Shown: piece after piece, positions 17,399 through 53,892 of the stretch
Layout of the letters: every line of letters starts with the position of its first letter
Position numbering within the stretch: the first letter of the stretch is position 1
Origin: Allacma fusca
Lineage: Eukaryota; Arthropoda; Collembola; Symphypleona; Sminthuridae
Assembly: GCA_947179485.1 (NCBI GenBank)
Contig: CAMXBY010000005.1
Coordinates: 124,001 to 188,000, forward strand
Reading direction: 5' to 3'
Length of the DNA: 64,000 bases
Position numbers and translations under genes: made by a program
The notes under the pieces: generated by a model
What the model saw: the letters and a program-made list of their open reading frames with translations, nothing else
Told to the model about the DNA's origin: nothing
Databases searched by the model: none

Positions 17399-19391
17399 TT
17401 ATCCATTCAAATAGGAACATGACCCGGAAAAGTCAAAGGTCAAGTTTGACCGATTGGCTCCGAATTCCCCTGAACTGGAGTTTATACCGCTAGATATATG
17501 TAGAGCCTGTACGCCTGTCAAATATTTTTAAAATGTTTTTATTTTTACTCGAGTTATCCATTCAAATAGGAACAGGACCCGGAAAAGGCAAAGGTCAAGT
17601 TTGACCGATTCGCTCCGAATCCCCCCGAACTGGAGTTGATACCGCTTGATATATGTAGGGGCTGTACTCCTGTCAAATATTTTTAAAATATTTTTATTTT
17701 TACTCGAGTTATCCATTCAAATAGGAACATGACCCGGAAAAGGCAAAGGTCAAGTTTGACCGATTCGCTCCGAATTCCCCCGAACTGGAGTTTTAACCGC
17801 TAGATATATGTAGGGGCTGTACGACCTGTCAAATATTTTAAAAATGTTTTTATTTTTACTCGAGTTATCCATTCAAATAGGAACAGGACCCGGAAAAGGC
17901 AAAGGTCAAGTTTGACCGATTTGCTCCGAATCCCCCCGAACTGGAGTTGATACCGCTTGATATATGTAGGGGCTGTACTCCTGTCAAATATTTTTAAAAT
18001 ATTTTTATTTTTACTCGAGTTATCCATTCAAATAGGAACATGACCCGGAAAAGGCAAAGGTCAAGTTTGACCGATTCGCTCCGAATTCCCCCGAACTGGA
18101 GTTTTAACCGCTAGATATATGTAGGGGCTGTACGACCTGTCAAATATTTAAAAAATGTTTTCATTTTTACTCGAGTTATCCTTTTAAATAGGAACATGAC
18201 CCGGAAAAGTCAAAGGTCAAGTTTGACTGATTCGCTCCGAATTCCACAGAACTAGAGTTTGTACCGCTAGATATATGCAGGGGCTGTACGCCTGCCAAAT
18301 ATTTTTAAAATATTTTCATTTTTACTCGAGTTATCCATTCAAATAGGAACATGACCCGGAAAAGTCAAAGGTCAAGTTTGACCGATTGGCTCCGAATTCC
18401 CCTGAACTGGAGTTTGTACCGCTAGATATATGTAGAGCCTGTACGCCTGTCAAATATTTTTAAAATATTTTTATTTTTACTCGACCTATCCATTCAAATA
18501 GGAACAGGACCCGGAAAAGTCAAAGGTCAAGTTTGACCGATTCGCTCCGAATTCCCCCGAACTGGAGTTTGTACCGCTTGATATATGTAGGGGCTGTACG
18601 CCTGTCAAATATTTTTAAAATATTTTTATTTTTAGTCGAGTTATCCATTCAAATAGGAACAGGGCCCGGAAAAGTCAAAGGTCAAGTTTGACCGATTGGC
18701 TCCGAATTCCCCAGAACTGGAGTTTGTACCGCTAGATATATGCAGGGGCTGTACGCCTGCCAAATATTTTAAAAATATTTTCATTTTTACTCGAGTAATC
18801 CATTCAAATAGGAACATGACCCGGAAAAGTCAAAGTTCAAGTTTGACCGACTCGCTCTGAATTCCCCCGAACAGGAGTTTGTACCTCTAGATATATGTAG
18901 GGGCTGTACGCCTGTCAAATATTTTAAAAATGTTTTCATTTTTACTCGAGTTATCCATTCAAATAGGAACATGACCCGGAAAAGTCAAAGGTCAAGTTTG
19001 ACCGATTGGCTCCGAATTCCCCCGAACTGGAGTTTATACCACTAGATATATGTAGGGGCTGTACGCCTGCCAAATATTTTTAAAATGTTTTTATTTTTAC
19101 TCGAGTTATCCATTCAAATAGGAACAGGACCCGGAAAAGGCAAAGGTCAAGTTTGACCGATTCGCTCCGAATCCCCCCGAACTGGAGTTGATACCGCTTG
19201 ATATATGTAGGGGCTGTACTCCTGTCAAATATTTTTAAAATATTTTTATTTTTACTCGAGTTATCCATTCAAATAGGAACATGACCCGGAAAAGGCAAAG
19301 GTCAAGTTTGACCGATTCGCTCCGAATTCCCCCGAACTGGAGTTTTAACCGCTAGATATATGTAGGGGCTGTACGACCTGTCAAATATTTA

Positions 19392-20651
19392 AAAAATGTT
19401 TTCATTTTTACTCGAGTTATCCTTTTAAATAGGAACATGACCCGGAAAAGTCAAAGGTCAAGTTTGACTGATTCGCTCCGAATTCAACAGAACTAGAGTT
19501 TGTACCGCTAGATATATGCAGGGGCTGTACGCCTGCCAAATATTTTTAAAATATTTTCATTTTTACTCGAGTTATCCATTCAAATAGGAACATGACCCGG
19601 AAAAGTCAAAGGTCAAGTTTGACCGATTGGCTCCGAATTCCCCTGAACTGGAGTTTGTACCGCTAGATATATGTAGAGCCTGTACGCCTGCCAAATATTT
19701 TAAAAATATTTTCATTTTTACTCGAGTAATCCATTCAAATAGGAACATGACCCGGAAAAGTCAAAGTTCAAGTTTGACCGACTCGCTCTGAATTCCCCCG
19801 AACAGGAGTTTGTACCTCTAGATATATGTAGGGGCTGTACGCCTGTCAAATATTTTAAAAATGTTTTCATTTTTACTCGAGTTATCCATTCAAATAGGAA
19901 CATGACCCGGAAAAGTCAAAGGTCAAGTTTGACCGATTGGCTCCGAATTCCCCCGAACTGGAGTTTATACCACTAGATATATGTAGGGGCTGTACGCCTG
20001 CCAAATATTTTAAAAATGTTTTTATTTTTACTCGAGTTATCCATTCAAATAGGAACAGGACCCGGAAAAAGCAAAGGTCAAGTTTGACCGATTCGCTCCG
20101 AATTCCCCCGAACTGGAGTTTGTACCGCTTGATATATGTAGGGGCTGTACTCCTGTCAAATATTTTTAAAATATTTTTATTTTTACTCGAGTTATCCATT
20201 CAAATAGGAACATGACCCGGAAAAGGCAAAGGTCAAGTTTGACCGATTCGCTCCGAATTCCCCCGAACTGGAGTTTTAACCGCTAGATATATGTAGGGGC
20301 TGTACGACCTGTCAAATATTTAAAAAATGTTTTCATTTTTACTCGAGTTATCCTTTTAAATAGGAACATGACCCGGAAAAGTCAAAGGTCAAGTTTGACT
20401 GATTCGCTCCGAATTCCACAGAACTAGAGTTTGTACCGCTAGATATATGCAGGGGCTGTACGCCTGCCAAATATTTTTAAAATATTTTCATTTTTACTCG
20501 AGTTATTCATTCAAATAGGAACATGACCCGGAAAAGTCAAAGGTCAAGTTTGACCGATTGGCTCCGAATTCCCCTGAACTGGAGTTTGTACCGCTAGATA
20601 TATGTAGAGCCTGTACGCCTGTCAAATATTTTTAAAATATTTTTATTTTTA
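19392..20651 (+). repeat. 15-monomer-offset segment, first copy (pairs with 21717-22976)
   Basis: This segment repeats at an offset of 2,325 bp (15x155). Shared order: GAATTCAACAGAACTAGAG, CCTGAACTGG with TAGAGCC, GTTCAAGTTTGACCGACTCG with GAACAGGAG and GTACCTCTAG, GTTTATACCACTAG, then GTACTCCTGTC and GGAGTTTTAACC. Small differences include CTGCCAAAT against CTGCTGAAT and GTTATTCATTC against GTTATCCATTC. Because it lies within copy A it is also present at ~31949-33208. Confidence 0.82.
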
Positions 20652-21716
20652 CTCGACCTATCCATTTAAATAGGAACAGGACCCGGAAAAGTCAAAGGTC
20701 AAGTTTGACCGATTCGCTCCGAATTCCCCCGAACTGGAGTTTGTACCGCTTGATATATGTAGGGGCTGTACTTCTGTCAAATATTTTTAAAATATTTTTA
20801 TTTTTACTCGAGTTATCCATTCAAATAGGAACATGACCCGGAAAAGGCAAAGGTCAAGTTTGACCGATTCGCTCCGAATTCCCCCGAACTGGAGTTTGTA
20901 CCGCTAGATATATGTAGGGGCTGTACGCCTGTAAAATATTCAAAAAATGTTTTCATTTTTATTCGTGTTATCGATTCAAATATTAAGATGACCCGGAAAA
21001 GTCAAAGGTCAAGTTTGACCGATTGGCTCCGAATTCCCCAGATTTGGAGTTTGTGCCGCTAGATATATGCAGGGGCTGTACGCCTGCCAAATATTTTAAA
21101 AATATTTTCATTTTTACTCGAGTAATCCATTCAAATGGGAACATGACCCGGAAAAGTCAAAGGTGCAGTTTGACCGATTCGCTCCGAATTCCCCCGAACT
21201 GGAGTTTGTACCGCTAGATATATGTAGGGGCTGTACGCCTGCCAAATATTTTTAAAATATTTTTATTTTTACTCGAGTTATCCATTCAAATAGGAACAGG
21301 ACCCGGAAAAGTCAAAGGTCAAGTTTGACCGATTGGCTCCGAATTCCCCAGAACTGGAGTTTGTACCGCTAGATATATGCAGGGGCTGTACGCCTGCCAA
21401 ATATTTTTAAAATATTTTCATTTTTATTTGAATAATCCATTCAAATAGGAACATGACCCGGAAAACCAAAGGTCAAGTTTGACCGATTCGCTCCGAATTC
21501 CCCCGAACTGGGGTTTGTACCGCTAGATATATGTAGGGGCTGTACGCCTGTCAAATATTTTAAAAATGTTTTCATTTTTACTCGAGTTATCCATTCAAAT
21601 AGGAACATGACCCGGAAAAGTCAAAGGTCAAGTTTGACCGATTCGCTCCGAATTCCCCCGAACTGGAGTTTGTACCGCTAGATATATGTAGGGGCTGTAC
21701 GCCTGTCAAATATTTT

Positions 21717-22976
21717 AAAAATGTTTTCATTTTTACTCGAGTTATCCTTTTAAATAGGAACATGACCCGGAAAAGTCAAAGGTCAAGTTTGACTGATTCG
21801 CTCCGAATTCAACAGAACTAGAGTTTGTACCGCTAGATATATGCAGGGGCTGTACGCCTGCCAAATATTTTTAAAATATTTTCATTTTTACTCGAGTTAT
21901 CCATTCAAATAGGAACATGACCCGGAAAAGTCAAAGGTCAAGTTTGACCGATTGGCTCCGAATTCCCCTGAACTGGAGTTTGTACCGCTAGATATATGTA
22001 GAGCCTGTACGCCTGCCAAATATTTTAAAAATATTTTCATTTTTACTCGAGTAATCTATTCAAATAGGAACATGACCCGGAAAAGTCAAAGTTCAAGTTT
22101 GACCGACTCGCTCTGAATTCCCCCGAACAGGAGTTTGTACCTCTAGATATATGTAGGGGCTGTACGCCTGTCAAATATTTTAAAAATGTTTTCATTTTTA
22201 CTCGAGTTATCCATTCAAATAGGAACATGACCCGGAAAAGTCAAAGGTCAAGTTTGACCGATTGGCTCCGAATTCCCCCGAACTGGAGTTTATACCACTA
22301 GATATATGTAGGGGCTGTACGCCTGCTGAATATTTTAAAAATGTTTTTATTTTTACTCGAGTTATCCATTCAAATAGGAACAGGACCCGGAAAAGGCAAA
22401 GGTCAAGTTTGACCGATTCGCTCCGAATTCCCCCGAACTGGAGTTTGTACCGCTTGATATATGTAGGGGCTGTACTCCTGTCAAATATTTTTTAAATATT
22501 TTTATTTTTACTCGAGTTATCCATTCAAATAGGAACATGACCCGGAAAAGGCAAAGGTCAAGTTTGACCGATTCGCTCCGAATTCCCCCGAACTGGAGTT
22601 TTAACCGCTAGATATATGTTGGGGCTGTACGACCTGTCAAATATTTAAAAAATGTTTTCATTTTTACTCGAGTTATCCTTTTAAATAGGAACATGACCCG
22701 GAAAAGTCAAAGGTCAAGTTTGACTGATTCGCTCCGAATTCCACAGAACTAGAGTTTGTACCGCTAGATATATGCAGGGGCTGTACGCCTGCCAAATATT
22801 TTTAAAATATTTTCATTTTTACTCGAGTTATCCATTCAAATGGGAACATGACCCGGAAAAGTCAAAGGTCAAGTTTGACCGATTGGCTCCGAATTCCCCT
22901 GAACTGGAGTTTGTACCGCTAGATATATGTAGAGCCTGTACGCCTGTCAAATATTTTTAAAATATTTTTATTTTTA
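21717..22976 (+). repeat. 15-monomer-offset segment, second copy
   Basis: Partner of 19392-20651. It ends where CTCGAGTTATCC replaces CTCGACCTATCC at ~22977. Its core (~22043-22700) recurs again at ~24214-24870, offset 2,171 bp, showing that the same multi-monomer cassette was copied at least three times inside copy A. Copy B carries the same set 12,557 bp further right. Confidence 0.8.
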
Positions 22977-24722
22977 CTCGAGTTATCCATTCAAATAGGA
23001 ACATGACCCGGAAAAGTCAAAGGTCAAGTTTGACCAATTCGCTCCGAATTCCCCCGAACTGGAGTTTGTACCGCTAGATATATGCAGGGGCTGTACGCCT
23101 GCCAAATATTTTTAAAATATTTTTATTTTTACTCGAGTTATCCATTCAAATAGGAACATGACCCGGAAAAGTCAAAGGTCAAGTTTGACCGATTGGCTCC
23201 GAATTCCCCAGAACTGGAGTTTGTACCGCTAGATATATGCAGGGGCTGTACGCCTGCCAAATATTTTAAAAATGTTTTTATTTTTACTCGAGTTATCCTT
23301 TTAAATAGGAACATGACCCGGAAAAGTCAAAGGTCAAGTTTGACTGATTCGCTCCGAATTCCACAGAACTAGAGTTTGTACCGCTAGATATATGCAGGGG
23401 CTGTACGCCTGCCAAATATTTTTAAAATATTTTCATTTTTACTCGAGTTATCCATTCAAATAGGAACATGACCCGGAAAAGTCAAACGTCAAGTTTGACC
23501 GATTGGCTCCGAATTCCCCCGAACTGGAGTTTATACCGCTAGATATATGCAGGGGCTGTACGCCTGCCAAATATTTTTAAAATATTTTTATTTTTACTCG
23601 AGTTATCCATTCAAATAGGAACATGACCCGGAAAAGTCAAAGGTCAAACTTGACCGATTCGCTCCGAATTCCCCCGAACTGGAGTTTGTACCGCTAGATA
23701 TATATAGGGGCTGCACGCCTGTAAAATGTTTAAAAAATGTTTTCAGTTTTACTCGAGTTATCGATTCCAATAGGAACATGACCCGGAAAAGTCAAAGGTC
23801 AAGTTTGACCGATTGGCTCCGAATTCCCCTGAACTGGAGTTTGTACCGCTAGATATATGTAGAGCCTGTACGCCTGTCAAATATTTTTAAAATATTTTTA
23901 TTTTTACTCGACCTATCCATTCAAATAGGAACAGGACCCGGAAAAGTCAAAGGTCAAGTTTGACCGATTCGCTCCGAATTCCCCCGAACTGGAGTTTGTA
24001 CCGCTAGATATATGCAGGGGCTGTACGCCTGCCAAATATTTTTAAAATATTTTTATTTTTACTCGAGTTATCCTTTTAAATAGGAACATGACCCGGAAAA
24101 GTCAAAGGTCAAGTTTGACCGATTGGCTCCGAATTCCCCAGAACTGGAGTTTGTACCGCTAGATATATGCAGGGGCTGTACGCCTGCCAAATATTTTTAA
24201 AATATTTTTATTTTTACTCGAGTAATCCATTCAAATAGGAACATGACCCGGAAAAGTCAAAGTTCAAGTTTGACCGACTCGCTCTGAATTCCCCCGAACA
24301 GGAGTTTGTACCTCTAGATATATGTAGGGGCTGTACGCCTGTCAAATATTTTAAAAATGTTTTCATTTTTACTCGAGTTATCCATTCAAATAGGAACATG
24401 ACCCGGAAAAGGCAAAGGTCAAGTTTGACCGATTGGCTCCGAATTCCCCCGAACTGGAGTTTATACCACTAGATGTATGTAGGGGCTGTACGCCTGCCAA
24501 ATATTTTAAAAATGTTTTTATTCTTACTCGAGTTATCCATTCAAATAGGAACAGGACCCGGAAAAGGCAAAGGTCAAGTTTGACCGATTCGCTCCGAATT
24601 CCCCCGAACTTGAGTTTGTACCGCTTGATATATGTAGGGGCTGTACTCCTGTCAAATATTTTTAAAATATTTTTATTTTTACTCGAGTTATCCATTCAAA
24701 TAGGAACATGACCCGGAAAAGG

Positions 24723-26892
24723 CAAAGGTCAAGTTTGACCGATTCGCTCCGAATTCCCCCGAACTGGAGTTTTAACCGCTAGATATATGTAGGGGCTGTA
24801 CGACCTGTCAAATATTTAAAAAATGTTTTCATTTTTACTCGAGTTATCCTTTTAAATAGGAACATGACCCGGAAAAGTCAAAGGTCAAGTTTGACTGATT
24901 CGCTCCGAATTCCACAGAACTAGAGTTTGTACCGCTAGATATATGCAGGGGCTGTACGCCTGCCAAATATTTTTAAAATATTTTCATTTTTACTCGAGTT
25001 ATCCATTCAAATAGGAACAGGACCCGGAAAAGTCAAAGGTCAAGTTTGACCGATTCGCTCCGATTTCCCCCGAACTGGAGTTTGTACCGCTAGATATATG
25101 CAGGGGCTGTACACCTGCCAAATATTTTTAAAATATTTTTATTTTTACTCGAGTTATCCATTCAAATAGGAACAGGACGCGGAAAAGTCAAAGGTCAAGT
25201 TTGACCGATTCGCTCCGAATTCCCCCGAACTGGAGTTTGTACCGCTAGATATATGCAGGGGCTGTACGCCTGCCAAATATTTTTAAAATATTTTTATTTT
25301 TATTTGAGTTATCCATTCAAATAGGAACATGACCCGGAAAAGTCAAAGGTCAAGTTTGACCGATTGGCTCCGAATTCCCCAGAACTGGAGTTTGTACCGC
25401 TAGATATATGCAGGGGCTGTACGCCTTCCAAATATTTTTAAAATGTTTTTATTTTTACTCGAGTTATCCTTTTAAATAGGAACATGACCCGGAAAAGTCA
25501 AAGGTCAAGTTTGACTGATTCGCTCCGAATTCCACAGAACTAGAGTTTGTACCGCTAGATATATGCAGGGGCTGTACGCCTGCCAAATATTTTTAAAATA
25601 TTTTCATTTTTACTCGAGTTATCCATTCAAATAGGAACATGACCCGGAAAAGTCAAAGGTCAAGTTTGACCGATTGGCTCCGAATTCCCCCGAACTGGAG
25701 TTTGTACCGCTAGATATATGCAGGGGCTGTACGCCTGCCAAATATTTTTAAAATATTTTTATTTTTACTCGAGTTATCCATTCAAATAGGAACATGACCC
25801 GGAAAAGTTAAAGGTCAAACTTGACCGATACGCTCCGAATTCCCCCGAACTGGAGTTTGTACCGCTAGATATATGTAGGGGCTGCACGCCTGTAAAATAT
25901 TTAAAAAATGTTTTCATTTTTACTCGAGTTATCGATTCAAATAGGAACATGACCCGGAAAAGTCAAAGGTCAAGTTTGACCGATTGGCTCCGAATTCCCC
26001 CGAACTGGAGTTTGTACCGCTAGATATATGTAGGGGCTGTACGCCTGTCAAATATTTTTAAAATATTTTCATTTTTACTCGAGTTATCAATTCAAATAGG
26101 AACAGGACCCGGAAAAGTCAAAGGTCAAGTTTGACCGATTCGCTCCGATTTCCCCCGAACTGGAGTTTGTACCGCTAGATATATGCAGGGGCTGTACACC
26201 TGCCAAATATTTTTAAAATATTTTTATTTTTACTCGAGTTATCCATTCAAATAGGATCATGACCCGGAAAAGTCAAAGGTCAAACTTGACTGATTCGCTC
26301 CGAATTCCCCCGAACTGGAGTTTGTACCGCTTGATATATGTAGGGGCTGTACGCCTGTAAAATATTTAAAAAATGTTTTCATTTTTACTCGAGTTATCGA
26401 TTCAAATATTAAGATGACCCGGAAAAGTCAAAGGTCAAGTTTGATCGATTGGCTCCGAATTCCCCAGAACTGGAGTTTGTACCGCTAGATATATGCAGGG
26501 GCATTACGCCTGCCAAATATTTTAAAAATATTTTCATTTTTATTCGAGTAATCCATTCAAATAGGAACATGACCCTGAAAAGTCAAAGGTCAAGTTTGAC
26601 CGATTCGCTCTGAATTCCCCCGAACTGGAGTTTGTACCGCTAGATATATGCAGGGGCTGTACGCCTGCCAAATATTTTGAAAATATTTTCATTTTTACTC
26701 CAGTAATCCATTCAAATAGGAACATGACCCGGAAAACCAAAGGTCAAGTTTGACCGATTCGCTCCAAATTCCCCCGAACTGGGGTTTGTACCGCTAGATA
26801 TATGTAGGGGCTGTACCCCTGTCAAATAATTTAAAAATGTTTTCATTTTTACTCGAGTTATCCATTCAAATAGGAACATGACCCGGGAAAGT
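24723..26892 (+). repeat. 14-monomer HOR unit 1 inside copy A (2,170 bp)
   Basis: It repeats immediately to the right at an offset of 2,170 bp, exactly 14x155. Shared marks in order: GGAGTTTTAACC, CACAGAACTAGAG, CGATTTCCCCCG with TGTACACCTGCC, TTTTATTTGAGTT, CGCCTTCCAAAT, the palindrome-inverted GGTCAAACTTGACC copies, GGGGCATTACG, TATTTTGAAAATATT, ACTCCAGTAATCC and GACCCGGGAAAG. This unit alone has GGACGCGGAAAAG (~25189; GGACCCGG in unit 2) and ACTTGACTGATTC (~26285; CCGATTC in unit 2). Confidence 0.9.
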
Positions 26893-27809
26893 CAAAGGTC
26901 AAGTTTGACCGATTCGCTCCGAATTCCCCCGAACTGGAGTTTTAACCGCTAGATATATGTAGGGGCTGTACGACCTGTCAAATATTTAAAAAATGTTTTC
27001 ATTTTTACTCGAGTTATCCTTTTAAATAGGAACATGACCCGGAAAAGTCAAAGGTCAAGTTTGACTGATTCGCTCCGAATTCCACAGAACTAGAGTTTGT
27101 ACCGCTAGATATATGCAGGGGCTGTACGCCTGCCAAATATTTTTAAAATATTTTCATTTTTACTCGAGTTATCCATTCAAATAGGAACAGGACCCGGAAA
27201 AGTCAAAGGTCAAGTTTGACCGATTCGCTCCGATTTCCCCCGAACTGGAGTTTGTACCGCTAGATATATGCAGGGGCTGTACACCTGCCAAATATTTTTA
27301 AAATATTTTTATTTTTACTCGAGTTATCCATTCAAATAGGAACAGGACCCGGAAAAGTCAAAGGTCAAGTTTGACCGATTCGCTCCGAATTCCCCCGAAC
27401 TGGAGTTTGTACCGCTAGATATATGCAGGGGCTGTACGCCTGCCAAATATTTTTAAAATATTTTTATTTTTATTTGAGTTATCCATTCAAATAGGAACAT
27501 GACCCGGAAAAGTCAAAGGTCAAGTTTGACCGATTGGCTCCGAATTCCCCAGAACTGGAGTTTGTACCGCTAGATATATGCAGGGGCTGTACGCCTTCCA
27601 AATATTTTTAAAATGTTTTTATTTTTACTCGAGTTATCCTTTTAAATAGGAACATGACCCGGAAAAGTCAAAGGTCAAGTTTGACTGATTCGCTCCGAAT
27701 TCCACAGAACTAGAGTTTGTACCGCTAGATATATGCAGGGGCTGTACGCCTGCCAAATATTTTTAAAATATTTTCATTTTTACTCGAGTTATCCATTCAA
27801 ATAGGAACA

Positions 27810-27841
27810 TGACCCGGAAAAGTCAAAGGTCAAGTTTGACC
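27810..27841 (+). other. GGTCA/TGACC half-site cluster (repeated in most monomers)
   Basis: Four hexamers resembling nuclear-receptor half-sites lie within 32 bp: TGACCC (27810-27815, minus-strand GGGTCA), AAGTCA (27820-27825), AGGTCA (27827-27832), and TTGACC (27836-27841, minus-strand GGTCAA). AAGTCA-A-AGGTCA is one mismatch from the DR1 consensus bound by HNF4, RXR and COUP-TF type receptors in animals. The resemblance is seen directly. Binding or function is not shown, and the match could be coincidental to a palindromic satellite. Many copies carry GGCAAAGGTCA instead, which weakens the first half-site. Confidence 0.45.
27828..27841. repeat. Near-perfect palindrome GGTCAAGTTTGACC, one per monomer
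   Basis: Arms GGTCAA and TTGACC are exact reverse complements separated by the dinucleotide GT. It recurs in most of the array; GGTCAAGTTTAACC, AGTTCAAGTTTGACC and GGTCCAGTTTGACC variants weaken it locally. A subset of copies carry AC in the centre, which is the exact reverse complement of the usual form. Short dyads like this are common protein-binding or hairpin-forming elements in satellites, but nothing here proves either role. Confidence 0.85.
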
Positions 27842-27909
27842 GATTGGCTCCGAATTCCCCCGAACTGGAGTTTGTACCGCTAGATATATGCAGGGGCTGT
27901 ACGCCTGCC

Positions 27910-27937
27910 AAATATTTTTAAAATATTTTTATTTTTA
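27910..27937. repeat. 28-bp pure A/T tract with 19-bp palindrome, one per monomer
   Basis: The tract holds AAATATTTTTAAAATATTT (27910-27928), with 9-nt arms AAATATTTT and AAAATATTT around a single T. It is followed by more T-rich sequence up to the XhoI site. Other copies have A in the centre, which is the reverse complement of this form; others read AAAAATGTTTT or AAAAAATGTTTT and lose the symmetry. An A/T block every 155 bp may help phase nucleosomes or bend DNA (inference). Confidence 0.85.
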
Positions 27938-30900
27938 CTCGAGTTATCCATTCAAATAGGAACATGACCCGGAAAAGTTAAAGGTCAAACTTGACCGATA
28001 CGCTCCGAATTCCCCCGAACTGGAGTTTGTACCGCTAGATATATGTAGGAGCTGCACGCCTGTAAAATATTTAAAAAATGTTTTCATTTTTACTCGAGTT
28101 ATCGATTCAAATAGGAACATGACCCGGAAAAGTCAAAGGTCAAGTTTGACCGATTGGCTCCGAATTCCCCCGAACTGGAGTTTGTACCGCTAGATATATG
28201 TAGGGGCTGTACGCCTGTCAAATATTTTTAAAATATTTTCATTTTTACTCGAGTTATCAATTCAAATAGGAACAGGACCCGGAAAAGTCAAAGGTCAAGT
28301 TTGACCGATTCGCTCCGATTTCCCCCGAACTGGAGTTTGTACCGCTAGATATATGCAGGGGCTGTACACCTGCCAAATATTTTTAAAATATTTTTATTTT
28401 TACTCGAGTTATCCATTCAAATAGGATCATGACCCGGAAAAGTCAAAGGTCAAACTTGACCGATTCGCTCCGAATTCCCCCGAACTGGAGTTTGTACCGC
28501 TTGATATATGTAGGGGCTGTACGCCTGTAAAATATTTAAAAAATGTTTTCATTTTTACTCGAGTTATCGATTCAAATATTAAGATGACCCGGAAAAGTCA
28601 AAGGTCAAGTTTGATCGATTGGCTCCGAATTCCCCAGAACTGGAGTTTGTACCGCTAGATATATGCAGGGGCATTACGCCTGCCAAATATTTTAAAAATA
28701 TTTTCATTTTTATTCGAGTAATCCATTCAAATAGGAACATGACCCTGAAAAGTCAAAGGTCAAGTTTGACCGATTCGCTCTGAATTCCCCCGAACTGGAG
28801 TTTGTACCGCTAGATATATGCAGGGGCTGTACGCCTGCCAAATATTTTGAAAATATTTTCATTTTTACTCCAGTAATCCATTCAAATAGGAACATGACCC
28901 GGAAAACCAAAGGTCAAGTTTGACCGATTCGCTCCAAATTCCCCCGAACTGGGGTTTGTACCGCTAGATATATGTAGGGGCTGTACCCCTGTCAAATAAT
29001 TTAAAAATGTTTTCATTTTTACTCGAGTTATCCATTCAAATAGGAACATGACCCGGGAAAGTCAAAGGTCAAGTTTGACCGATTCGCTCCGAATTCCCCC
29101 GAACTGGAGTTTGTACCGCTAGATATATGTAGGGGCTGTACGCCTGTCAAATATTCAAAAAATGTTTTCATTTTTACTCGTGTTATCGATTCAAATATTA
29201 AGGTGACCCGGAAAAGTCAAAGGCCAAGTTTGACCGATTGGCTCCGAATTCCCCCGAACTGGAGTTTGTACCGCTAGATATATGCAGGGGCTGTACGCCT
29301 GCCAAATATTTTAAAAATATTTTCATTTTTACTTCAGTAATCCATTCAAATAGGAACATGACCCGGAAAACCAAAGGTCAAGTTTGACCGATTCGCTCCG
29401 AATTCCCCCGAACTGGGGTTTGTACCGCTAGATATATGTAGGGGCTGTACGCCTGTAAAATATTCAAAAAATGTTTTCATTTTTACTCGTGTTATCGATT
29501 CAAATATTAAGATGACTCGGAAAAGTCAAAGGTCAAGTTTGACCGATTGGCTCCGAATTCCCCAGATTTGGAGTTTGTGCCGCTAGATATATGCAGGGGC
29601 TGTACGCCTGCCAAATATTTTTAAAATATTTTCATTTTTACTCGAGTAATCCATTCAAATGGGAACATGACCCGGAAAAGTCAAAGGTCCAGTTTGACCG
29701 ATTCGCTCCGAATTCCCCCGAACTGGAGTTTGTACCGCTAGATATAGGTAGGGGCTGTACGCCTGCCAAATATTTTTAAAATATTTTTATTTTTACTCGA
29801 GTTATCCATTCAAATAGGAACAGGACCCGGAAAAGTCAAAGGTCAAGTTTGACCGATTGGCTCCGAATTCCCCAGAACTGGAGTTTGTAATGCTAGATAT
29901 ATGCAGGGGCTGTACGCCTGCCAAATATTTTTAAAATATTTTCATTTTTACTCGAGTTATCCATTCAAATAGGAACATGACCCGGAAAAGTCAAAGGTCA
30001 AGTTTGACCGATTGGCTCCGAATTCCCCTGAACTGGAGTTTATACCGCTAGATATATGTAGAGCCTGTACGCCTGTCAAATATTTTTAAAATGTTTTTAT
30101 TTTTACTCGAGTTATCCATTCAAATAGGAACAGGACCCGGAAAAGGCAAAGGTCAAGTTTGACCGATTCGCTCCGAATCCCCCCGAACTGGAGTTGATAC
30201 CGCTTGATATATGTAGGGGCTGTACTCCTGTCAAATATTTTTAAAATATTTTTATTTTTACTCGAGTTATCCATTCAAATAGGAACATGACCCGGAAAAG
30301 GCAAAGGTCAAGTTTGACCGATTCGCTCCGAATCCCCCCGAACTGGAGTTGATACCGCTTGATATATGTAGGGGCTGTACTCCTGTCAAATATTTTTAAA
30401 ATATTTTTATTTTTACTCGAGTTATCCATTCAAATAGGAACAGGACCCGGAAAAGGCAAAGGTCAAGTTTGACCGATTTGCTCCGAATCCCCCCGAACTG
30501 GAGTTGATACCGCTTGATATATGTAGGGGCTGTACTCCTGTCAAATATTTTTAAAATATTTTTATTTTTACTCGAGTTATCCATTCAAATAGGAACATGA
30601 CCCGGAAAAGGCAAAGGTCAAGTTTGACCGATTCGCTCCGAATTCCCCCGAACTGGAGTTTTAACCGCTAGATATATGTAGGGGCTGTACGACCTGTCAA
30701 ATATTTAAAAAATGTTTTCATTTTTACTCGAGTTATCCTTTTAAATAGGAACATGACCCGGAAAAGTCAAAGGTCAAGTTTGACTGATTCGCTCCGAATT
30801 CCACAGAACTAGAGTTTGTACCGCTAGATATATGCAGGGGCTGTACGCCTGCCAAATATTTTTAAAATATTTTCATTTTTACTCGAGTTATCCATTCAAA

Positions 30901-33900
30901 TAGGAACATGACCCGGAAAAGTCAAAGGTCAAGTTTGACCGATTGGCTCCGAATTCCCCTGAACTGGAGTTTGTACCGCTAGATATATGTAGAGCCTGTA
31001 CGCCTGTCAAATATTTTTAAAATATTTTTATTTTTACTCGACCTATCCATTCAAATAGGAACAGGACCCGGAAAAGTCAAAGGTCAAGTTTGACCGATTC
31101 GCTCCGAATTCCCCCGAACTGGAGTTTGTACCGCTTGATATATGTAGGGGCTGTACGCCTGTCAAATATTTTTAAAATATTTTTATTTTTAGTCGAGTTA
31201 TCCATTCAAATAGGAACAGGGCCCGGAAAAGTCAAAGGTCAAGTTTGACCGATTGGCTCCGAATTCCCCAGAACTGGAGTTTGTACCGCTAGATATATGC
31301 AGGGGCTGTACGCCTGCCAAATATTTTAAAAATATTTTCATTTTTACTCGAGTAATCCATTCAAATAGGAACATGACCCGGAAAAGTCAAAGTTCAAGTT
31401 TGACCGACTCGCTCTGAATTCCCCCGAACAGGAGTTTGTACCTCTAGATATATGTAGGGGCTGTACGCCTGTCAAATATTTTAAAAATGTTTTCATTTTT
31501 ACTCGAGTTATCCATTCAAATAGGAACATGACCCGGAAAAGTCAAAGGTCAAGTTTGACCGATTGGCTCCGAATTCCCCCGAACTGGAGTTTATACCACT
31601 AGATATATGTAGGGGCTGTACGCCTGCCAAATATTTTTAAAATGTTTTTATTTTTACTCGAGTTATCCATTCAAATAGGAACAGGACCCGGAAAAGGCAA
31701 AGGTCAAGTTTGACCGATTCGCTCCGAATCCCCCCGAACTGGAGTTGATACCGCTTGATATATGTAGGGGCTGTACTCCTGTCAAATATTTTTAAAATAT
31801 TTTTATTTTTACTCGAGTTATCCATTCAAATAGGAACATGACCCGGAAAAGGCAAAGGTCAAGTTTGACCGATTCGCTCCGAATTCCCCCGAACTGGAGT
31901 TTTAACCGCTAGATATATGTAGGGGCTGTACGACCTGTCAAATATTTAAAAAATGTTTTCATTTTTACTCGAGTTATCCTTTTAAATAGGAACATGACCC
32001 GGAAAAGTCAAAGGTCAAGTTTGACTGATTCGCTCCGAATTCAACAGAACTAGAGTTTGTACCGCTAGATATATGCAGGGGCTGTACGCCTGCCAAATAT
32101 TTTTAAAATATTTTCATTTTTACTCGAGTTATCCATTCAAATAGGAACATGACCCGGAAAAGTCAAAGGTCAAGTTTGACCGATTGGCTCCGAATTCCCC
32201 TGAACTGGAGTTTGTACCGCTAGATATATGTAGAGCCTGTACGCCTGCCAAATATTTTAAAAATATTTTCATTTTTACTCGAGTAATCCATTCAAATAGG
32301 AACATGACCCGGAAAAGTCAAAGTTCAAGTTTGACCGACTCGCTCTGAATTCCCCCGAACAGGAGTTTGTACCTCTAGATATATGTAGGGGCTGTACGCC
32401 TGTCAAATATTTTAAAAATGTTTTCATTTTTACTCGAGTTATCCATTCAAATAGGAACATGACCCGGAAAAGTCAAAGGTCAAGTTTGACCGATTGGCTC
32501 CGAATTCCCCCGAACTGGAGTTTATACCACTAGATATATGTAGGGGCTGTACGCCTGCCAAATATTTTAAAAATGTTTTTATTTTTACTCGAGTTATCCA
32601 TTCAAATAGGAACAGGACCCGGAAAAAGCAAAGGTCAAGTTTGACCGATTCGCTCCGAATTCCCCCGAACTGGAGTTTGTACCGCTTGATATATGTAGGG
32701 GCTGTACTCCTGTCAAATATTTTTAAAATATTTTTATTTTTACTCGAGTTATCCATTCAAATAGGAACATGACCCGGAAAAGGCAAAGGTCAAGTTTGAC
32801 CGATTCGCTCCGAATTCCCCCGAACTGGAGTTTTAACCGCTAGATATATGTAGGGGCTGTACGACCTGTCAAATATTTAAAAAATGTTTTCATTTTTACT
32901 CGAGTTATCCTTTTAAATAGGAACATGACCCGGAAAAGTCAAAGGTCAAGTTTGACTGATTCGCTCCGAATTCCACAGAACTAGAGTTTGTACCGCTAGA
33001 TATATGCAGGGGCTGTACGCCTGCCAAATATTTTTAAAATATTTTCATTTTTACTCGAGTTATTCATTCAAATAGGAACATGACCCGGAAAAGTCAAAGG
33101 TCAAGTTTGACCGATTGGCTCCGAATTCCCCTGAACTGGAGTTTGTACCGCTAGATATATGTAGAGCCTGTACGCCTGTCAAATATTTTTAAAATATTTT
33201 TATTTTTACTCGACCTATCCATTTAAATAGGAACAGGACCCGGAAAAGTCAAAGGTCAAGTTTGACCGATTCGCTCCGAATTCCCCCGAACTGGAGTTTG
33301 TACCGCTTGATATATGTAGGGGCTGTACTTCTGTCAAATATTTTTAAAATATTTTTATTTTTACTCGAGTTATCCATTCAAATAGGAACATGACCCGGAA
33401 AAGGCAAAGGTCAAGTTTGACCGATTCGCTCCGAATTCCCCCGAACTGGAGTTTGTACCGCTAGATATATGTAGGGGCTGTACGCCTGTAAAATATTCAA
33501 AAAATGTTTTCATTTTTATTCGTGTTATCGATTCAAATATTAAGATGACCCGGAAAAGTCAAAGGTCAAGTTTGACCGATTGGCTCCGAATTCCCCAGAT
33601 TTGGAGTTTGTGCCGCTAGATATATGCAGGGGCTGTACGCCTGCCAAATATTTTAAAAATATTTTCATTTTTACTCGAGTAATCCATTCAAATGGGAACA
33701 TGACCCGGAAAAGTCAAAGGTGCAGTTTGACCGATTCGCTCCGAATTCCCCCGAACTGGAGTTTGTACCGCTAGATATATGTAGGGGCTGTACGCCTGCC
33801 AAATATTTTTAAAATATTTTTATTTTTACTCGAGTTATCCATTCAAATAGGAACAGGACCCGGAAAAGTCAAAGGTCAAGTTTGACCGATTGGCTCCGAA

Positions 33901-36900
33901 TTCCCCAGAACTGGAGTTTGTACCGCTAGATATATGCAGGGGCTGTACGCCTGCCAAATATTTTTAAAATATTTTCATTTTTATTTGAATAATCCATTCA
34001 AATAGGAACATGACCCGGAAAACCAAAGGTCAAGTTTGACCGATTCGCTCCGAATTCCCCCGAACTGGGGTTTGTACCGCTAGATATATGTAGGGGCTGT
34101 ACGCCTGTCAAATATTTTAAAAATGTTTTCATTTTTACTCGAGTTATCCATTCAAATAGGAACATGACCCGGAAAAGTCAAAGGTCAAGTTTGACCGATT
34201 CGCTCCGAATTCCCCCGAACTGGAGTTTGTACCGCTAGATATATGTAGGGGCTGTACGCCTGTCAAATATTTTAAAAATGTTTTCATTTTTACTCGAGTT
34301 ATCCTTTTAAATAGGAACATGACCCGGAAAAGTCAAAGGTCAAGTTTGACTGATTCGCTCCGAATTCAACAGAACTAGAGTTTGTACCGCTAGATATATG
34401 CAGGGGCTGTACGCCTGCCAAATATTTTTAAAATATTTTCATTTTTACTCGAGTTATCCATTCAAATAGGAACATGACCCGGAAAAGTCAAAGGTCAAGT
34501 TTGACCGATTGGCTCCGAATTCCCCTGAACTGGAGTTTGTACCGCTAGATATATGTAGAGCCTGTACGCCTGCCAAATATTTTAAAAATATTTTCATTTT
34601 TACTCGAGTAATCTATTCAAATAGGAACATGACCCGGAAAAGTCAAAGTTCAAGTTTGACCGACTCGCTCTGAATTCCCCCGAACAGGAGTTTGTACCTC
34701 TAGATATATGTAGGGGCTGTACGCCTGTCAAATATTTTAAAAATGTTTTCATTTTTACTCGAGTTATCCATTCAAATAGGAACATGACCCGGAAAAGTCA
34801 AAGGTCAAGTTTGACCGATTGGCTCCGAATTCCCCCGAACTGGAGTTTATACCACTAGATATATGTAGGGGCTGTACGCCTGCTGAATATTTTAAAAATG
34901 TTTTTATTTTTACTCGAGTTATCCATTCAAATAGGAACAGGACCCGGAAAAGGCAAAGGTCAAGTTTGACCGATTCGCTCCGAATTCCCCCGAACTGGAG
35001 TTTGTACCGCTTGATATATGTAGGGGCTGTACTCCTGTCAAATATTTTTTAAATATTTTTATTTTTACTCGAGTTATCCATTCAAATAGGAACATGACCC
35101 GGAAAAGGCAAAGGTCAAGTTTGACCGATTCGCTCCGAATTCCCCCGAACTGGAGTTTTAACCGCTAGATATATGTTGGGGCTGTACGACCTGTCAAATA
35201 TTTAAAAAATGTTTTCATTTTTACTCGAGTTATCCTTTTAAATAGGAACATGACCCGGAAAAGTCAAAGGTCAAGTTTGACTGATTCGCTCCGAATTCCA
35301 CAGAACTAGAGTTTGTACCGCTAGATATATGCAGGGGCTGTACGCCTGCCAAATATTTTTAAAATATTTTCATTTTTACTCGAGTTATCCATTCAAATGG
35401 GAACATGACCCGGAAAAGTCAAAGGTCAAGTTTGACCGATTGGCTCCGAATTCCCCTGAACTGGAGTTTGTACCGCTAGATATATGTAGAGCCTGTACGC
35501 CTGTCAAATATTTTTAAAATATTTTTATTTTTACTCGAGTTATCCATTCAAATAGGAACATGACCCGGAAAAGTCAAAGGTCAAGTTTGACCAATTCGCT
35601 CCGAATTCCCCCGAACTGGAGTTTGTACCGCTAGATATATGCAGGGGCTGTACGCCTGCCAAATATTTTTAAAATATTTTTATTTTTACTCGAGTTATCC
35701 ATTCAAATAGGAACATGACCCGGAAAAGTCAAAGGTCAAGTTTGACCGATTGGCTCCGAATTCCCCAGAACTGGAGTTTGTACCGCTAGATATATGCAGG
35801 GGCTGTACGCCTGCCAAATATTTTAAAAATGTTTTTATTTTTACTCGAGTTATCCTTTTAAATAGGAACATGACCCGGAAAAGTCAAAGGTCAAGTTTGA
35901 CTGATTCGCTCCGAATTCCACAGAACTAGAGTTTGTACCGCTAGATATATGCAGGGGCTGTACGCCTGCCAAATATTTTTAAAATATTTTCATTTTTACT
36001 CGAGTTATCCATTCAAATAGGAACATGACCCGGAAAAGTCAAACGTCAAGTTTGACCGATTGGCTCCGAATTCCCCCGAACTGGAGTTTATACCGCTAGA
36101 TATATGCAGGGGCTGTACGCCTGCCAAATATTTTTAAAATATTTTTATTTTTACTCGAGTTATCCATTCAAATAGGAACATGACCCGGAAAAGTCAAAGG
36201 TCAAACTTGACCGATTCGCTCCGAATTCCCCCGAACTGGAGTTTGTACCGCTAGATATATATAGGGGCTGCACGCCTGTAAAATGTTTAAAAAATGTTTT
36301 CAGTTTTACTCGAGTTATCGATTCCAATAGGAACATGACCCGGAAAAGTCAAAGGTCAAGTTTGACCGATTGGCTCCGAATTCCCCTGAACTGGAGTTTG
36401 TACCGCTAGATATATGTAGAGCCTGTACGCCTGTCAAATATTTTTAAAATATTTTTATTTTTACTCGACCTATCCATTCAAATAGGAACAGGACCCGGAA
36501 AAGTCAAAGGTCAAGTTTGACCGATTCGCTCCGAATTCCCCCGAACTGGAGTTTGTACCGCTAGATATATGCAGGGGCTGTACGCCTGCCAAATATTTTT
36601 AAAATATTTTTATTTTTACTCGAGTTATCCTTTTAAATAGGAACATGACCCGGAAAAGTCAAAGGTCAAGTTTGACCGATTGGCTCCGAATTCCCCAGAA
36701 CTGGAGTTTGTACCGCTAGATATATGCAGGGGCTGTACGCCTGCCAAATATTTTTAAAATATTTTTATTTTTACTCGAGTAATCCATTCAAATAGGAACA
36801 TGACCCGGAAAAGTCAAAGTTCAAGTTTGACCGACTCGCTCTGAATTCCCCCGAACAGGAGTTTGTACCTCTAGATATATGTAGGGGCTGTACGCCTGTC

Positions 36901-37279
36901 AAATATTTTAAAAATGTTTTCATTTTTACTCGAGTTATCCATTCAAATAGGAACATGACCCGGAAAAGGCAAAGGTCAAGTTTGACCGATTGGCTCCGAA
37001 TTCCCCCGAACTGGAGTTTATACCACTAGATGTATGTAGGGGCTGTACGCCTGCCAAATATTTTAAAAATGTTTTTATTCTTACTCGAGTTATCCATTCA
37101 AATAGGAACAGGACCCGGAAAAGGCAAAGGTCAAGTTTGACCGATTCGCTCCGAATTCCCCCGAACTTGAGTTTGTACCGCTTGATATATGTAGGGGCTG
37201 TACTCCTGTCAAATATTTTTAAAATATTTTTATTTTTACTCGAGTTATCCATTCAAATAGGAACATGACCCGGAAAAGG

Positions 37280-39449
37280 CAAAGGTCAAGTTTGACCGAT
37301 TCGCTCCGAATTCCCCCGAACTGGAGTTTTAACCGCTAGATATATGTAGGGGCTGTACGACCTGTCAAATATTTAAAAAATGTTTTCATTTTTACTCGAG
37401 TTATCCTTTTAAATAGGAACATGACCCGGAAAAGTCAAAGGTCAAGTTTGACTGATTCGCTCCGAATTCCACAGAACTAGAGTTTGTACCGCTAGATATA
37501 TGCAGGGGCTGTACGCCTGCCAAATATTTTTAAAATATTTTCATTTTTACTCGAGTTATCCATTCAAATAGGAACAGGACCCGGAAAAGTCAAAGGTCAA
37601 GTTTGACCGATTCGCTCCGATTTCCCCCGAACTGGAGTTTGTACCGCTAGATATATGCAGGGGCTGTACACCTGCCAAATATTTTTAAAATATTTTTATT
37701 TTTACTCGAGTTATCCATTCAAATAGGAACAGGACGCGGAAAAGTCAAAGGTCAAGTTTGACCGATTCGCTCCGAATTCCCCCGAACTGGAGTTTGTACC
37801 GCTAGATATATGCAGGGGCTGTACGCCTGCCAAATATTTTTAAAATATTTTTATTTTTATTTGAGTTATCCATTCAAATAGGAACATGACCCGGAAAAGT
37901 CAAAGGTCAAGTTTGACCGATTGGCTCCGAATTCCCCAGAACTGGAGTTTGTACCGCTAGATATATGCAGGGGCTGTACGCCTTCCAAATATTTTTAAAA
38001 TGTTTTTATTTTTACTCGAGTTATCCTTTTAAATAGGAACATGACCCGGAAAAGTCAAAGGTCAAGTTTGACTGATTCGCTCCGAATTCCACAGAACTAG
38101 AGTTTGTACCGCTAGATATATGCAGGGGCTGTACGCCTGCCAAATATTTTTAAAATATTTTCATTTTTACTCGAGTTATCCATTCAAATAGGAACATGAC
38201 CCGGAAAAGTCAAAGGTCAAGTTTGACCGATTGGCTCCGAATTCCCCCGAACTGGAGTTTGTACCGCTAGATATATGCAGGGGCTGTACGCCTGCCAAAT
38301 ATTTTTAAAATATTTTTATTTTTACTCGAGTTATCCATTCAAATAGGAACATGACCCGGAAAAGTTAAAGGTCAAACTTGACCGATACGCTCCGAATTCC
38401 CCCGAACTGGAGTTTGTACCGCTAGATATATGTAGGGGCTGCACGCCTGTAAAATATTTAAAAAATGTTTTCATTTTTACTCGAGTTATCGATTCAAATA
38501 GGAACATGACCCGGAAAAGTCAAAGGTCAAGTTTGACCGATTGGCTCCGAATTCCCCCGAACTGGAGTTTGTACCGCTAGATATATGTAGGGGCTGTACG
38601 CCTGTCAAATATTTTTAAAATATTTTCATTTTTACTCGAGTTATCAATTCAAATAGGAACAGGACCCGGAAAAGTCAAAGGTCAAGTTTGACCGATTCGC
38701 TCCGATTTCCCCCGAACTGGAGTTTGTACCGCTAGATATATGCAGGGGCTGTACACCTGCCAAATATTTTTAAAATATTTTTATTTTTACTCGAGTTATC
38801 CATTCAAATAGGATCATGACCCGGAAAAGTCAAAGGTCAAACTTGACTGATTCGCTCCGAATTCCCCCGAACTGGAGTTTGTACCGCTTGATATATGTAG
38901 GGGCTGTACGCCTGTAAAATATTTAAAAAATGTTTTCATTTTTACTCGAGTTATCGATTCAAATATTAAGATGACCCGGAAAAGTCAAAGGTCAAGTTTG
39001 ATCGATTGGCTCCGAATTCCCCAGAACTGGAGTTTGTACCGCTAGATATATGCAGGGGCATTACGCCTGCCAAATATTTTAAAAATATTTTCATTTTTAT
39101 TCGAGTAATCCATTCAAATAGGAACATGACCCTGAAAAGTCAAAGGTCAAGTTTGACCGATTCGCTCTGAATTCCCCCGAACTGGAGTTTGTACCGCTAG
39201 ATATATGCAGGGGCTGTACGCCTGCCAAATATTTTGAAAATATTTTCATTTTTACTCCAGTAATCCATTCAAATAGGAACATGACCCGGAAAACCAAAGG
39301 TCAAGTTTGACCGATTCGCTCCAAATTCCCCCGAACTGGGGTTTGTACCGCTAGATATATGTAGGGGCTGTACCCCTGTCAAATAATTTAAAAATGTTTT
39401 CATTTTTACTCGAGTTATCCATTCAAATAGGAACATGACCCGGGAAAGT
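37280..39449 (+). repeat. 14-monomer HOR unit 1 inside copy B
   Basis: Counterpart of 24723-26892 at +12,557 bp. It keeps the unit-1 marks GGACGCGGAAAAG (~37735) and ACTTGACTGATTC (~38842), confirming that it descends from unit 1 rather than unit 2. Confidence 0.88.
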
Positions 39450-41619
39450 CAAAGGTCAAGTTTGACCGATTCGCTCCGAATTCCCCCGAACTGGAGTTTT
39501 AACCGCTAGATATATGTAGGGGCTGTACGACCTGTCAAATATTTAAAAAATGTTTTCATTTTTACTCGAGTTATCCTTTTAAATAGGAACATGACCCGGA
39601 AAAGTCAAAGGTCAAGTTTGACTGATTCGCTCCGAATTCCACAGAACTAGAGTTTGTACCGCTAGATATATGCAGGGGCTGTACGCCTGCCAAATATTTT
39701 TAAAATATTTTCATTTTTACTCGAGTTATCCATTCAAATAGGAACAGGACCCGGAAAAGTCAAAGGTCAAGTTTGACCGATTCGCTCCGATTTCCCCCGA
39801 ACTGGAGTTTGTACCGCTAGATATATGCAGGGGCTGTACACCTGCCAAATATTTTTAAAATATTTTTATTTTTACTCGAGTTATCCATTCAAATAGGAAC
39901 AGGACCCGGAAAAGTCAAAGGTCAAGTTTGACCGATTCGCTCCGAATTCCCCCGAACTGGAGTTTGTACCGCTAGATATATGCAGGGGCTGTACGCCTGC
40001 CAAATATTTTTAAAATATTTTTATTTTTATTTGAGTTATCCATTCAAATAGGAACATGACCCGGAAAAGTCAAAGGTCAAGTTTGACCGATTGGCTCCGA
40101 ATTCCCCAGAACTGGAGTTTGTACCGCTAGATATATGCAGGGGCTGTACGCCTTCCAAATATTTTTAAAATGTTTTTATTTTTACTCGAGTTATCCTTTT
40201 AAATAGGAACATGACCCGGAAAAGTCAAAGGTCAAGTTTGACTGATTCGCTCCGAATTCCACAGAACTAGAGTTTGTACCGCTAGATATATGCAGGGGCT
40301 GTACGCCTGCCAAATATTTTTAAAATATTTTCATTTTTACTCGAGTTATCCATTCAAATAGGAACATGACCCGGAAAAGTCAAAGGTCAAGTTTGACCGA
40401 TTGGCTCCGAATTCCCCCGAACTGGAGTTTGTACCGCTAGATATATGCAGGGGCTGTACGCCTGCCAAATATTTTTAAAATATTTTTATTTTTACTCGAG
40501 TTATCCATTCAAATAGGAACATGACCCGGAAAAGTTAAAGGTCAAACTTGACCGATACGCTCCGAATTCCCCCGAACTGGAGTTTGTACCGCTAGATATA
40601 TGTAGGGGCTGCACGCCTGTAAAATATTTAAAAAATGTTTTCATTTTTACTCGAGTTATCGATTCAAATAGGAACATGACCCGGAAAAGTCAAAGGTCAA
40701 GTTTGACCGATTGGCTCCGAATTCCCCCGAACTGGAGTTTGTACCGCTAGATATATGTAGGGGCTGTACGCCTGTCAAATATTTTTAAAATATTTTCATT
40801 TTTACTCGAGTTATCAATTCAAATAGGAACAGGACCCGGAAAAGTCAAAGGTCAAGTTTGACCGATTCGCTCCGATTTCCCCCGAACTGGAGTTTGTACC
40901 GCTAGATATATGCAGGGGCTGTACACCTGCCAAATATTTTTAAAATATTTTTATTTTTACTCGAGTTATCCATTCAAATAGGATCATGACCCGGAAAAGT
41001 CAAAGGTCAAACTTGACCGATTCGCTCCGAATTCCCCCGAACTGGAGTTTGTACCGCTTGATATATGTAGGGGCTGTACGCCTGTAAAATATTTAAAAAA
41101 TGTTTTCATTTTTACTCGAGTTATCGATTCAAATATTAAGATGACCCGGAAAAGTCAAAGGTCAAGTTTGATCGATTGGCTCCGAATTCCCCAGAACTGG
41201 AGTTTGTACCGCTAGATATATGCAGGGGCATTACGCCTGCCAAATATTTTAAAAATATTTTCATTTTTATTCGAGTAATCCATTCAAATAGGAACATGAC
41301 CCTGAAAAGTCAAAGGTCAAGTTTGACCGATTCGCTCTGAATTCCCCCGAACTGGAGTTTGTACCGCTAGATATATGCAGGGGCTGTACGCCTGCCAAAT
41401 ATTTTGAAAATATTTTCATTTTTACTCCAGTAATCCATTCAAATAGGAACATGACCCGGAAAACCAAAGGTCAAGTTTGACCGATTCGCTCCAAATTCCC
41501 CCGAACTGGGGTTTGTACCGCTAGATATATGTAGGGGCTGTACCCCTGTCAAATAATTTAAAAATGTTTTCATTTTTACTCGAGTTATCCATTCAAATAG
41601 GAACATGACCCGGGAAAGT
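39450..41619 (+). repeat. 14-monomer HOR unit 2 inside copy B
   Basis: Counterpart of 26893-29062. It keeps the unit-2 marks GGACCCGG (~39903) and ACTTGACCGATTC (~41012). It lacks the TAGGAGCTGCACG substitution seen in copy A unit 2, so that change arose in A after the large duplication, or was lost from B. Confidence 0.88.
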
Positions 41620-42512
41620 CAAAGGTCAAGTTTGACCGATTCGCTCCGAATTCCCCCGAACTGGAGTTTGTACCGCTAGATATATGTAGGGGCTGTACGC
41701 CTGTCAAATATTCAAAAAATGTTTTCATTTTTACTCGTGTTATCGATTCAAATATTAAGGTGACCCGGAAAAGTCAAAGGCCAAGTTTGACCGATTGGCT
41801 CCGAATTCCCCCGAACTGGAGTTTGTACCGCTAGATATATGCAGGGGCTGTACGCCTGCCAAATATTTTAAAAATATTTTCATTTTTACTTCAGTAATCC
41901 ATTCAAATAGGAACATGACCCGGAAAACCAAAGGTCAAGTTTGACCGATTCGCTCCGAATTCCCCCGAACTGGGGTTGGTACCGCTAGATATATGTAGGG
42001 GCTGTACGCCTGTAAAATATTCAAAAAATGTTTTCATTTTTACTCGTGTTATCGATTCAAATATTAAGATGACTCGGAAAAGTCAAAGGTCAAGTTTGAC
42101 CGATTGGCTCCGAATTCCCCAGATTTGGAGTTTGTGCCGCTAGATATATGCAGGGGCTGTACGCCTGCCAAATATTTTTAAAATATTTTCATTTTTACTC
42201 GAGTAATCCATTCAAATGGGAACATGACCCGGAAAAGTCAAAGGTCCAGTTTGACCGATTCGCTCCGAATTCCCCCGAACTGGAGTTTGTACCGCTAGAT
42301 ATAGGTAGGGGCTGTACGCCTGCCAAATATTTTTAAAATATTTTTATTTTTACTCGAGTTATCCATTCAAATAGGAACAGGACCCGGAAAAGTCAAAGGT
42401 CAAGTTTGACCGATTGGCTCCGAATTCCCCAGAACTGGAGTTTGTAATGCTAGATATATGCAGGGGCTGTACGCCTGCCAAATATTTTTAAAATATTTTC
42501 ATTTTTACTCGA

Positions 42513-53772: not shown

Positions 53773-53892
53773 ATATAGGGGCTGTACGCCTGCCAAATAT
53801 TTTTAAAATATTTTTATTTTTACTCGAGTTATCCATTCAAATAGGAACAGAACCCGGAAAAGGCAAAAGTCAAGTTTGACCGATTTACTCTG

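What the first reader, a model, noticed from the sequence alone, without database searches (positions are those of the whole stretch)
17399..42512. Near-identical 81-monomer (12,557 bp) tandem duplication inside the satellite
Two abutting 12.56 kb segments carry the same rare monomer variants in the same order. I saw only two isolated substitutions and one short patch between them in the parts compared. The unit is far larger than the other HORs here (3-19 monomers). It implies a single very recent unequal exchange, or an assembly duplication. The ambiguous ~60-bp identical stretch at the join (29893-29955 and 17336-17398) is the likely exchange site.
Basis: seen in the sequence. Interest (0 to 1): 0.72.

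Follow-up and report, generated by a model that had tools for sequence, protein, structure and literature searches.

The report
Large recent duplication within satellite array
A 12.6-kb block of 81 tandem repeats in what looks like a springtail's satellite array has been copied once, quite recently, next to itself; this is an ordinary if unusually large example of how such arrays change, and the two copies still show the few changes made since.

Summary
The duplication is real in the assembly. Copy 1 (17398-29955) and copy 2 (29956-42512) differ by two isolated substitutions and one 71-bp patch of 8 substitutions and a 1-bp indel. A 64-bp sequence stands identically at the left boundary, the join and the right end. 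Older paralogues run through the left boundary with 1 mismatch in 665 bp, none closely through the middle, so 29892-29955 is the new join. Related copies in the array polarise all three differences: one private mutation in each copy, and one copy-2 monomer overwritten by a neighbour's sequence, 379 bp from the join. The array is 1,252 monomers (~194 kb) on a 471-kb contig; two exact motifs occur no more often in the genome than in this array. The genome fits the springtail Allacma fusca. The 81-mer is the largest simple tandem duplication found there and among the least diverged; an older one of about 47 monomers lies outside the window. Human pedigrees show de novo satellite changes up to 12.2 kb, so it is ordinary in kind. 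No reads were available: 10,203 bp are identical and the HiFi library was PCR-amplified, so exact copy number is unproven.

The parts
1..64000 (+). 155-bp satellite, part of a 1,252-monomer array on contig C13 (about 12,020-206,294); the whole window is satellite
17398..29955 (+). copy 1 of the 81-monomer duplication (12,558 bp)
29956..42512 (+). copy 2 of the 81-monomer duplication (12,557 bp)
17334..17397 (+). 64-bp tract at the left boundary; this boundary is ancestral (older paralogues run through it)
29892..29955 (+). same 64-bp tract at the new join between the copies: inferred exchange site
42449..42512 (+). same 64-bp tract at the right end of copy 2
17776..17846 (+). patch, ancestral form, kept in copy 1
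   Evidence: outgroup differs by 1 of 151 positions
30334..30403 (+). patch in copy 2, overwritten: identical to the monomers on either side (exact tracts of 154 bp with the one at 30179 and 118 bp with the one at 30489)
28050..28050 (+). private substitution in copy 1 (A; copy 2 and the related internal HOR copies have G)
41978..41978 (+). private substitution in copy 2 (G; its counterpart 29421 has T, one of 18 places in the array with that 31-bp context)
14087..14751 (+). older paralogue running through the left boundary; used as outgroup
24675..29112 (+). older 14-monomer duplication inside the unit, present in both copies

Best explanation
Shown in the assembly: an 81-monomer block stands twice, head to tail, in monomer register; the new join is 29892-29955; each copy has one private point mutation, and one copy-2 monomer has taken the sequence of its neighbour over at least 70 bp. 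Inferred: the copy arose by misaligned homologous recombination, most likely between sister chromatids (unequal sister-chromatid exchange), with the crossover in the 64-bp identical tract; the patch is a short-tract gene conversion between adjacent monomers, either later or as part of the same repair, since it lies 379 bp from the join. From the two substitutions the age is about 29,000 generations (3,600-107,000) at a recalled Drosophila-like rate of 2.8e-9 per site, or about 1,700 (200-6,000) at roughly the human centromeric rate.
For: Identity and period. Older paralogues run through the left boundary with 1 mismatch in 665 and in 661 bp; the best ungapped match through the join is 322 bp with 6 mismatches. 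Private states and exact adjacent donors; the outgroup shares copy 1's patch (1 mismatch, against 9 and a gap for copy 2). Smaller duplications in the same array have the same anatomy, e.g. units of 10, 11, 14 and 15 monomers with overlaps of 23-98 bp, three of the four with 1-2 mismatches. Human pedigree: de novo alpha-satellite changes of 680-12,228 bp in whole HOR units (PMC12240836, passages). Drosophila histone array: unequal sister exchange, and conversion tracts of a few hundred bases, discussed (PMC12400953, passages). Sperm of A. fusca males are reported to show no recombination (PMC9630974, passages), so a meiotic inter-homologue route would be left to females. Age.
Against: No reads. 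Sister versus homologue cannot be told apart: the heterozygous variants reported for two males (28,070 and 235,301 anchored to chromosomes; by my arithmetic about 0.007% and 0.06% of the genome) bracket the 0.017% between the copies. The 64-bp tract is not clearly long (P 0.048 and 0.064), and seven hand-picked junctions together give P 0.060 by median and 0.159 by mean, so a need for identity beyond monomer register is unproven. No close paralogue runs through the right boundary, so that one was not shown to be ancestral. The patch's closeness to the join (about 4% by chance, my arithmetic coordinates) hints at a less simple event.
Confidence: 0.65

Rival explanations
1. Replicative origin: a broken or stalled fork re-invaded 81 monomers upstream and recopied the block (break-induced replication or template switching), without a crossover; a second short switch made the patch.
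For: Gives the same A-B-B-C anatomy with in-register homology. The overwritten patch lies 379-448 bp from the new join, in copy 2. Break-induced replication is linked to human array expansion (PMC11034957, search listing and start of abstract only).
Against: No direct evidence; apart from the patch the sequence within several hundred bp of the join is identical to its counterparts.
Confidence: 0.2
2. Assembly artefact: wrong copy number (for example a collapsed third copy) or a false duplication.
For: 10,203 bp are identical; the library used the ultra-low-input protocol after 12-20 kb shearing (PMC10427803), an amplification-based protocol for which average reads of about 10 kb are reported (PMC11809032, passages). 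A putative collapsed tandem duplication was met in a Drosophila assembly (PMC12400953, passages).
Against: The copies differ at three places, two with private variants; expected base errors at QV 58.7 are 0.03. Inference: the join needs reads that hold it, since the two ends share only 64 bp, and with patch 1 tied to the left flank and SNP 2 to the right flank any walk must pass the block at least twice. Chimeric alignments in tested human libraries were at most 0.81%.
Confidence: 0.12
3. A circle of 81 monomers was excised and reinserted beside its source.
For: Satellite-derived circles are surveyed in plants (PMC2543021, title and start of abstract only).
Against: Needs two events and exact adjacent, in-register insertion.
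Confidence: 0.03

Closest known systems
De novo alpha-satellite HOR insertions and deletions in a human pedigree (PMC12240836, passages)
   Same: Array grows or shrinks by whole repeat units; sizes up to 12,228 bp in one generation
   Different: Human centromeric HOR arrays; here a two-copy block of otherwise heterogeneous monomers on one unplaced contig of a springtail genome
Large higher-order repeats of alpha satellite (52-, 58- and 59-mers, titles)
   Same: Multi-monomer unit, with the units far more alike than the monomers within
   Different: Only two copies here, so at most a newborn HOR
Histone gene array of Drosophila melanogaster (PMC12400953, passages)
   Same: Copy-number change in a tandem array, with unequal sister-chromatid exchange and gene conversion discussed as causes
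   Different: Genic array, compared between haplotypes; here within one assembly

Membership tests
Tandem segmental duplication in a satellite array | Two abutting direct copies, far more alike than other monomer pairs of the array | tested here: met
Tandem segmental duplication in a satellite array | New join between the copies, outer boundaries ancestral | tested here: inconclusive
   Left boundary ancestral and join new; no close paralogue runs through the right boundary
Tandem segmental duplication in a satellite array | Present in reads and in the germ line | not testable with these tools
   no reads held
Higher-order repeat array | Many tandem copies of the multi-monomer unit | tested here: not met
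   No lag-162 run among the 44 run pairs; two copies only
Pan-centromeric satellite | Arrays on all chromosomes | tested here: not met
   Exact 16-mer: 847 in this array and 847 in the genome; exact 24-mer: 626 and 626. Diverged relatives could be missed
Centromeric satellite (any) | Bound by CENH3 | not testable with these tools
   no chromatin data
Gene conversion tract | Recipient exactly matches a donor across the tract, flanks unchanged, ancestral state known | tested here: met
   but the array holds ten exact donors, so which one acted is unknown

The most novel reading that the evidence does not exclude
The array, found at one locus only, lies in a species whose males lose X1 and X2 in early embryos and whose sperm show no recombination. 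It could be a chromosome-specific element, such as one chromosome's centromere or a controlling site for chromosome elimination, that grows by large duplications outside meiotic crossing-over.
Probability: 0.04. Interest if true: 0.8.

Novelty: new member of a known kind. Interest (0 to 1): 0.22.

Why it matters
It gives a clean, polarised snapshot of one satellite duplication and the changes since: two point mutations and one neighbour-to-neighbour conversion in about 25 kb. Pairs like this let mutation and conversion in satellites be compared directly, here in a lineage for which the rows listed by my two literature searches (10 of 16; 10 of 8,561) show no satellite-array study by title. A sample of one gives no rate.

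Tried and rejected
Rice CentO was my first guess, from memory, because of the 155-bp length and 393-Mb genome; TTAGG telomeres, an invertebrate-code COX1 and the chromosome lengths spoke against a plant. Pan-centromeric satellite: rejected. Whether the exchange tract is longer than chance was tested and is inconclusive: the seven junctions were picked by me from 44 run pairs as those with a small positive overlap, the 47-mer was put together by hand from several rows, and rows with negative overlap or with large overlap (more than two copies) were dropped. A rise of divergence at the array edges was looked for and not seen; instead the left half is somewhat further from the consensus than the right. 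The 31-mer multiplicity of copy 1 (6.3% exactly twice, against a mean of 5.5% in 239 control blocks; 0.2% single against 7.1%) is no substitute for read depth. Rfam: no match in the 5 non-satellite loci given. A whole-genome DNA search with 1 kb of satellite was not scored, and an 88-base exact pattern found nothing, being too long.

Full report
What was checked. The window is G000:C13:124001-188000 of a 392.7-Mb genome in 91 contigs. The whole window is a 155-bp satellite. Contig C13 is 470,923 bp, and the array runs from about 12,020 to 206,294 with non-satellite sequence on both sides. I cut it into 1,252 monomers of 152-157 bp, 730 of them distinct, with no monomer interrupted by an insert.

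Organism. TTAGG telomere repeats, a mitochondrial contig of 14,936 bp with COX1 read by the invertebrate code and contig lengths of 81.89, 75.61, 58.81 and 55.59 Mb fit chromosomes 1, 2, 4 and X1 of the springtail Allacma fusca (PMC10427803, parts 1 and 2 of 3 of the text read). The total and the scaffold count differ slightly from the paper (392,743,791 against 392,786,974 bp; 91 against 95; longest 81,893,619 against 81,897,997 bp), so it may be another version; the assignment is inference. C13 matches none of the published chromosome lengths and is taken as unplaced. Parts of its flanks are dispersed repeats that are 86-99% identical on several chromosomes, so it is not foreign DNA.

Observation. 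Copies 17398-29955 and 29956-42512 differ by 10 substitutions and 1 indel, of which 8 and the indel lie in one 71-bp patch. The longest exact run is 10,203 bp; the longest exact direct repeat of the array not belonging to this pair is 1,858 bp. The copies are 81 monomers apart. A 64-bp tract is shared exactly at 17334-17397, 29892-29955 and 42449-42512.

Polarity. An older paralogue 2,947 bp upstream matches the left flank and the start of copy 1 straight through the boundary, with 1 mismatch in 665 bp, and a second does so with 1 in 661 bp; the best ungapped match through the middle join is 322 bp with 6 mismatches. The left boundary is therefore ancestral and the middle join new. No close match runs through the right boundary, so that one stays open. 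At the patch the paralogue agrees with copy 1 (1 mismatch in 151 positions) and not with copy 2 (9 mismatches and a gap), while copy 2's monomer equals its neighbours exactly over 154 and 118 bp. So copy 2 was overwritten, at or after the duplication. The patch starts 379 bp from the join; by my arithmetic a randomly placed patch would fall that near the join on either side in about 4% of cases, so it may belong to the same event. In its 31-bp context the A at 28050 occurs once in the array against 3 times for G, and the G at 41978 once against 18 for T. Each copy therefore has one private mutation.

Setting. One search lists 44 run pairs (base-level edges), many dependent on each other; most have lags of 6-24 monomers. 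Several are simple two-copy duplications with short overlaps at the join. An older large one, period 7,268 bp at its left end, lies at C13:60,947-68,256 and 68,215-74,442 with 0.21-0.33% differences in its parts, since rearranged inside. Two pairs have lag 95: one is the 81-mer combined with its internal 14-mer, the other a 1.3-kb match at a distance, not a tandem one. The 81-mer is the largest simple tandem duplication and among the least diverged (0.02% over the 12,109-bp run), though four short runs of 1.05-1.26 kb show no difference at all, so it need not be the youngest.

Single locus. The exact 16-mer GTCAAGTTTGACCGAT occurs 847 times in the array and 847 times in the genome, and a 24-mer 626 and 626, on one strand only. 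Diverged relatives elsewhere could be missed.

Mechanism. Monomer register and a homologous join point to homologous recombination. Sister-chromatid exchange is my first choice because the copies are nearly identical and because sperm of A. fusca males are reported to show no recombination (PMC9630974, passages); but heterozygosity is low enough that exchange between near-identical homologues in females is not excluded, nor is replication-based copying. The tract-length tests were inconclusive. Age estimates are; the Drosophila rate is recalled, the human centromeric rate (about 5e-8) is.

Artefact. [quoted passage not shown] that protocol amplifies by PCR and can average about 10 kb (PMC11809032, passages). 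So the 10,203-bp identical stretch may be spanned by few reads. By inference the order is still forced, because patch and SNP of each copy attach to different neighbours, but more than two copies cannot be excluded.

Literature. Of 150 human centromere transmissions 18 de novo structural changes were validated, 13 in HOR arrays, of 680-12,228 bp (PMC12240836, passages), so this event is ordinary, near the upper end in size. My searches on springtail satellites (16 papers, 10 listed; 8,561 papers, 10 listed, none of the 10 holding 'Allacma') showed no study of this array; the Folsomia candida paper reports centromere positions, and its main text holds neither 'satellite' nor 'monomer' (PMC13194869, passages).

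Noticed in passing
C13:60947-68256 and 68215-74442 (L007, L008): An older tandem duplication of about 47 monomers (7.3 kb), 0.21-0.33% diverged in its parts, later reshaped inside.
   Followed up: partly
C13:206320-206513 (L016): Just beyond the array's right end a stretch of about 190 bp is 96-99% identical to dispersed copies on six chromosome-sized contigs.
   Followed up: no
C13:10229-10688 (L002): Part of the left flank is 73-78% like a tandem repeat of about 322 bp on C12 near 1.424 Mb and like copies on C10 near 32.077 Mb.
   Followed up: no
window 1-64000, monomer positions 42-61: The most conserved part of the monomer is around AAAGGTCAAGTTTGACC, with an imperfect palindrome GGTCAA-gt-TTGACC; a protein-binding site is possible, untested.
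   Followed up: no
G000 C12 (58.14 and 57.62 Mb), C5 (4.64 Mb), C8 (22.97 Mb): Full-length COX1 matches on nuclear chromosomes score like the mitochondrial contig: large recent nuclear copies, or misplaced mitochondrial DNA.
   Followed up: no
L019 (C13:260001-270000): ORFs that recall invertebrate mobile-element proteins, by eye and from memory; no search made.
   Followed up: no
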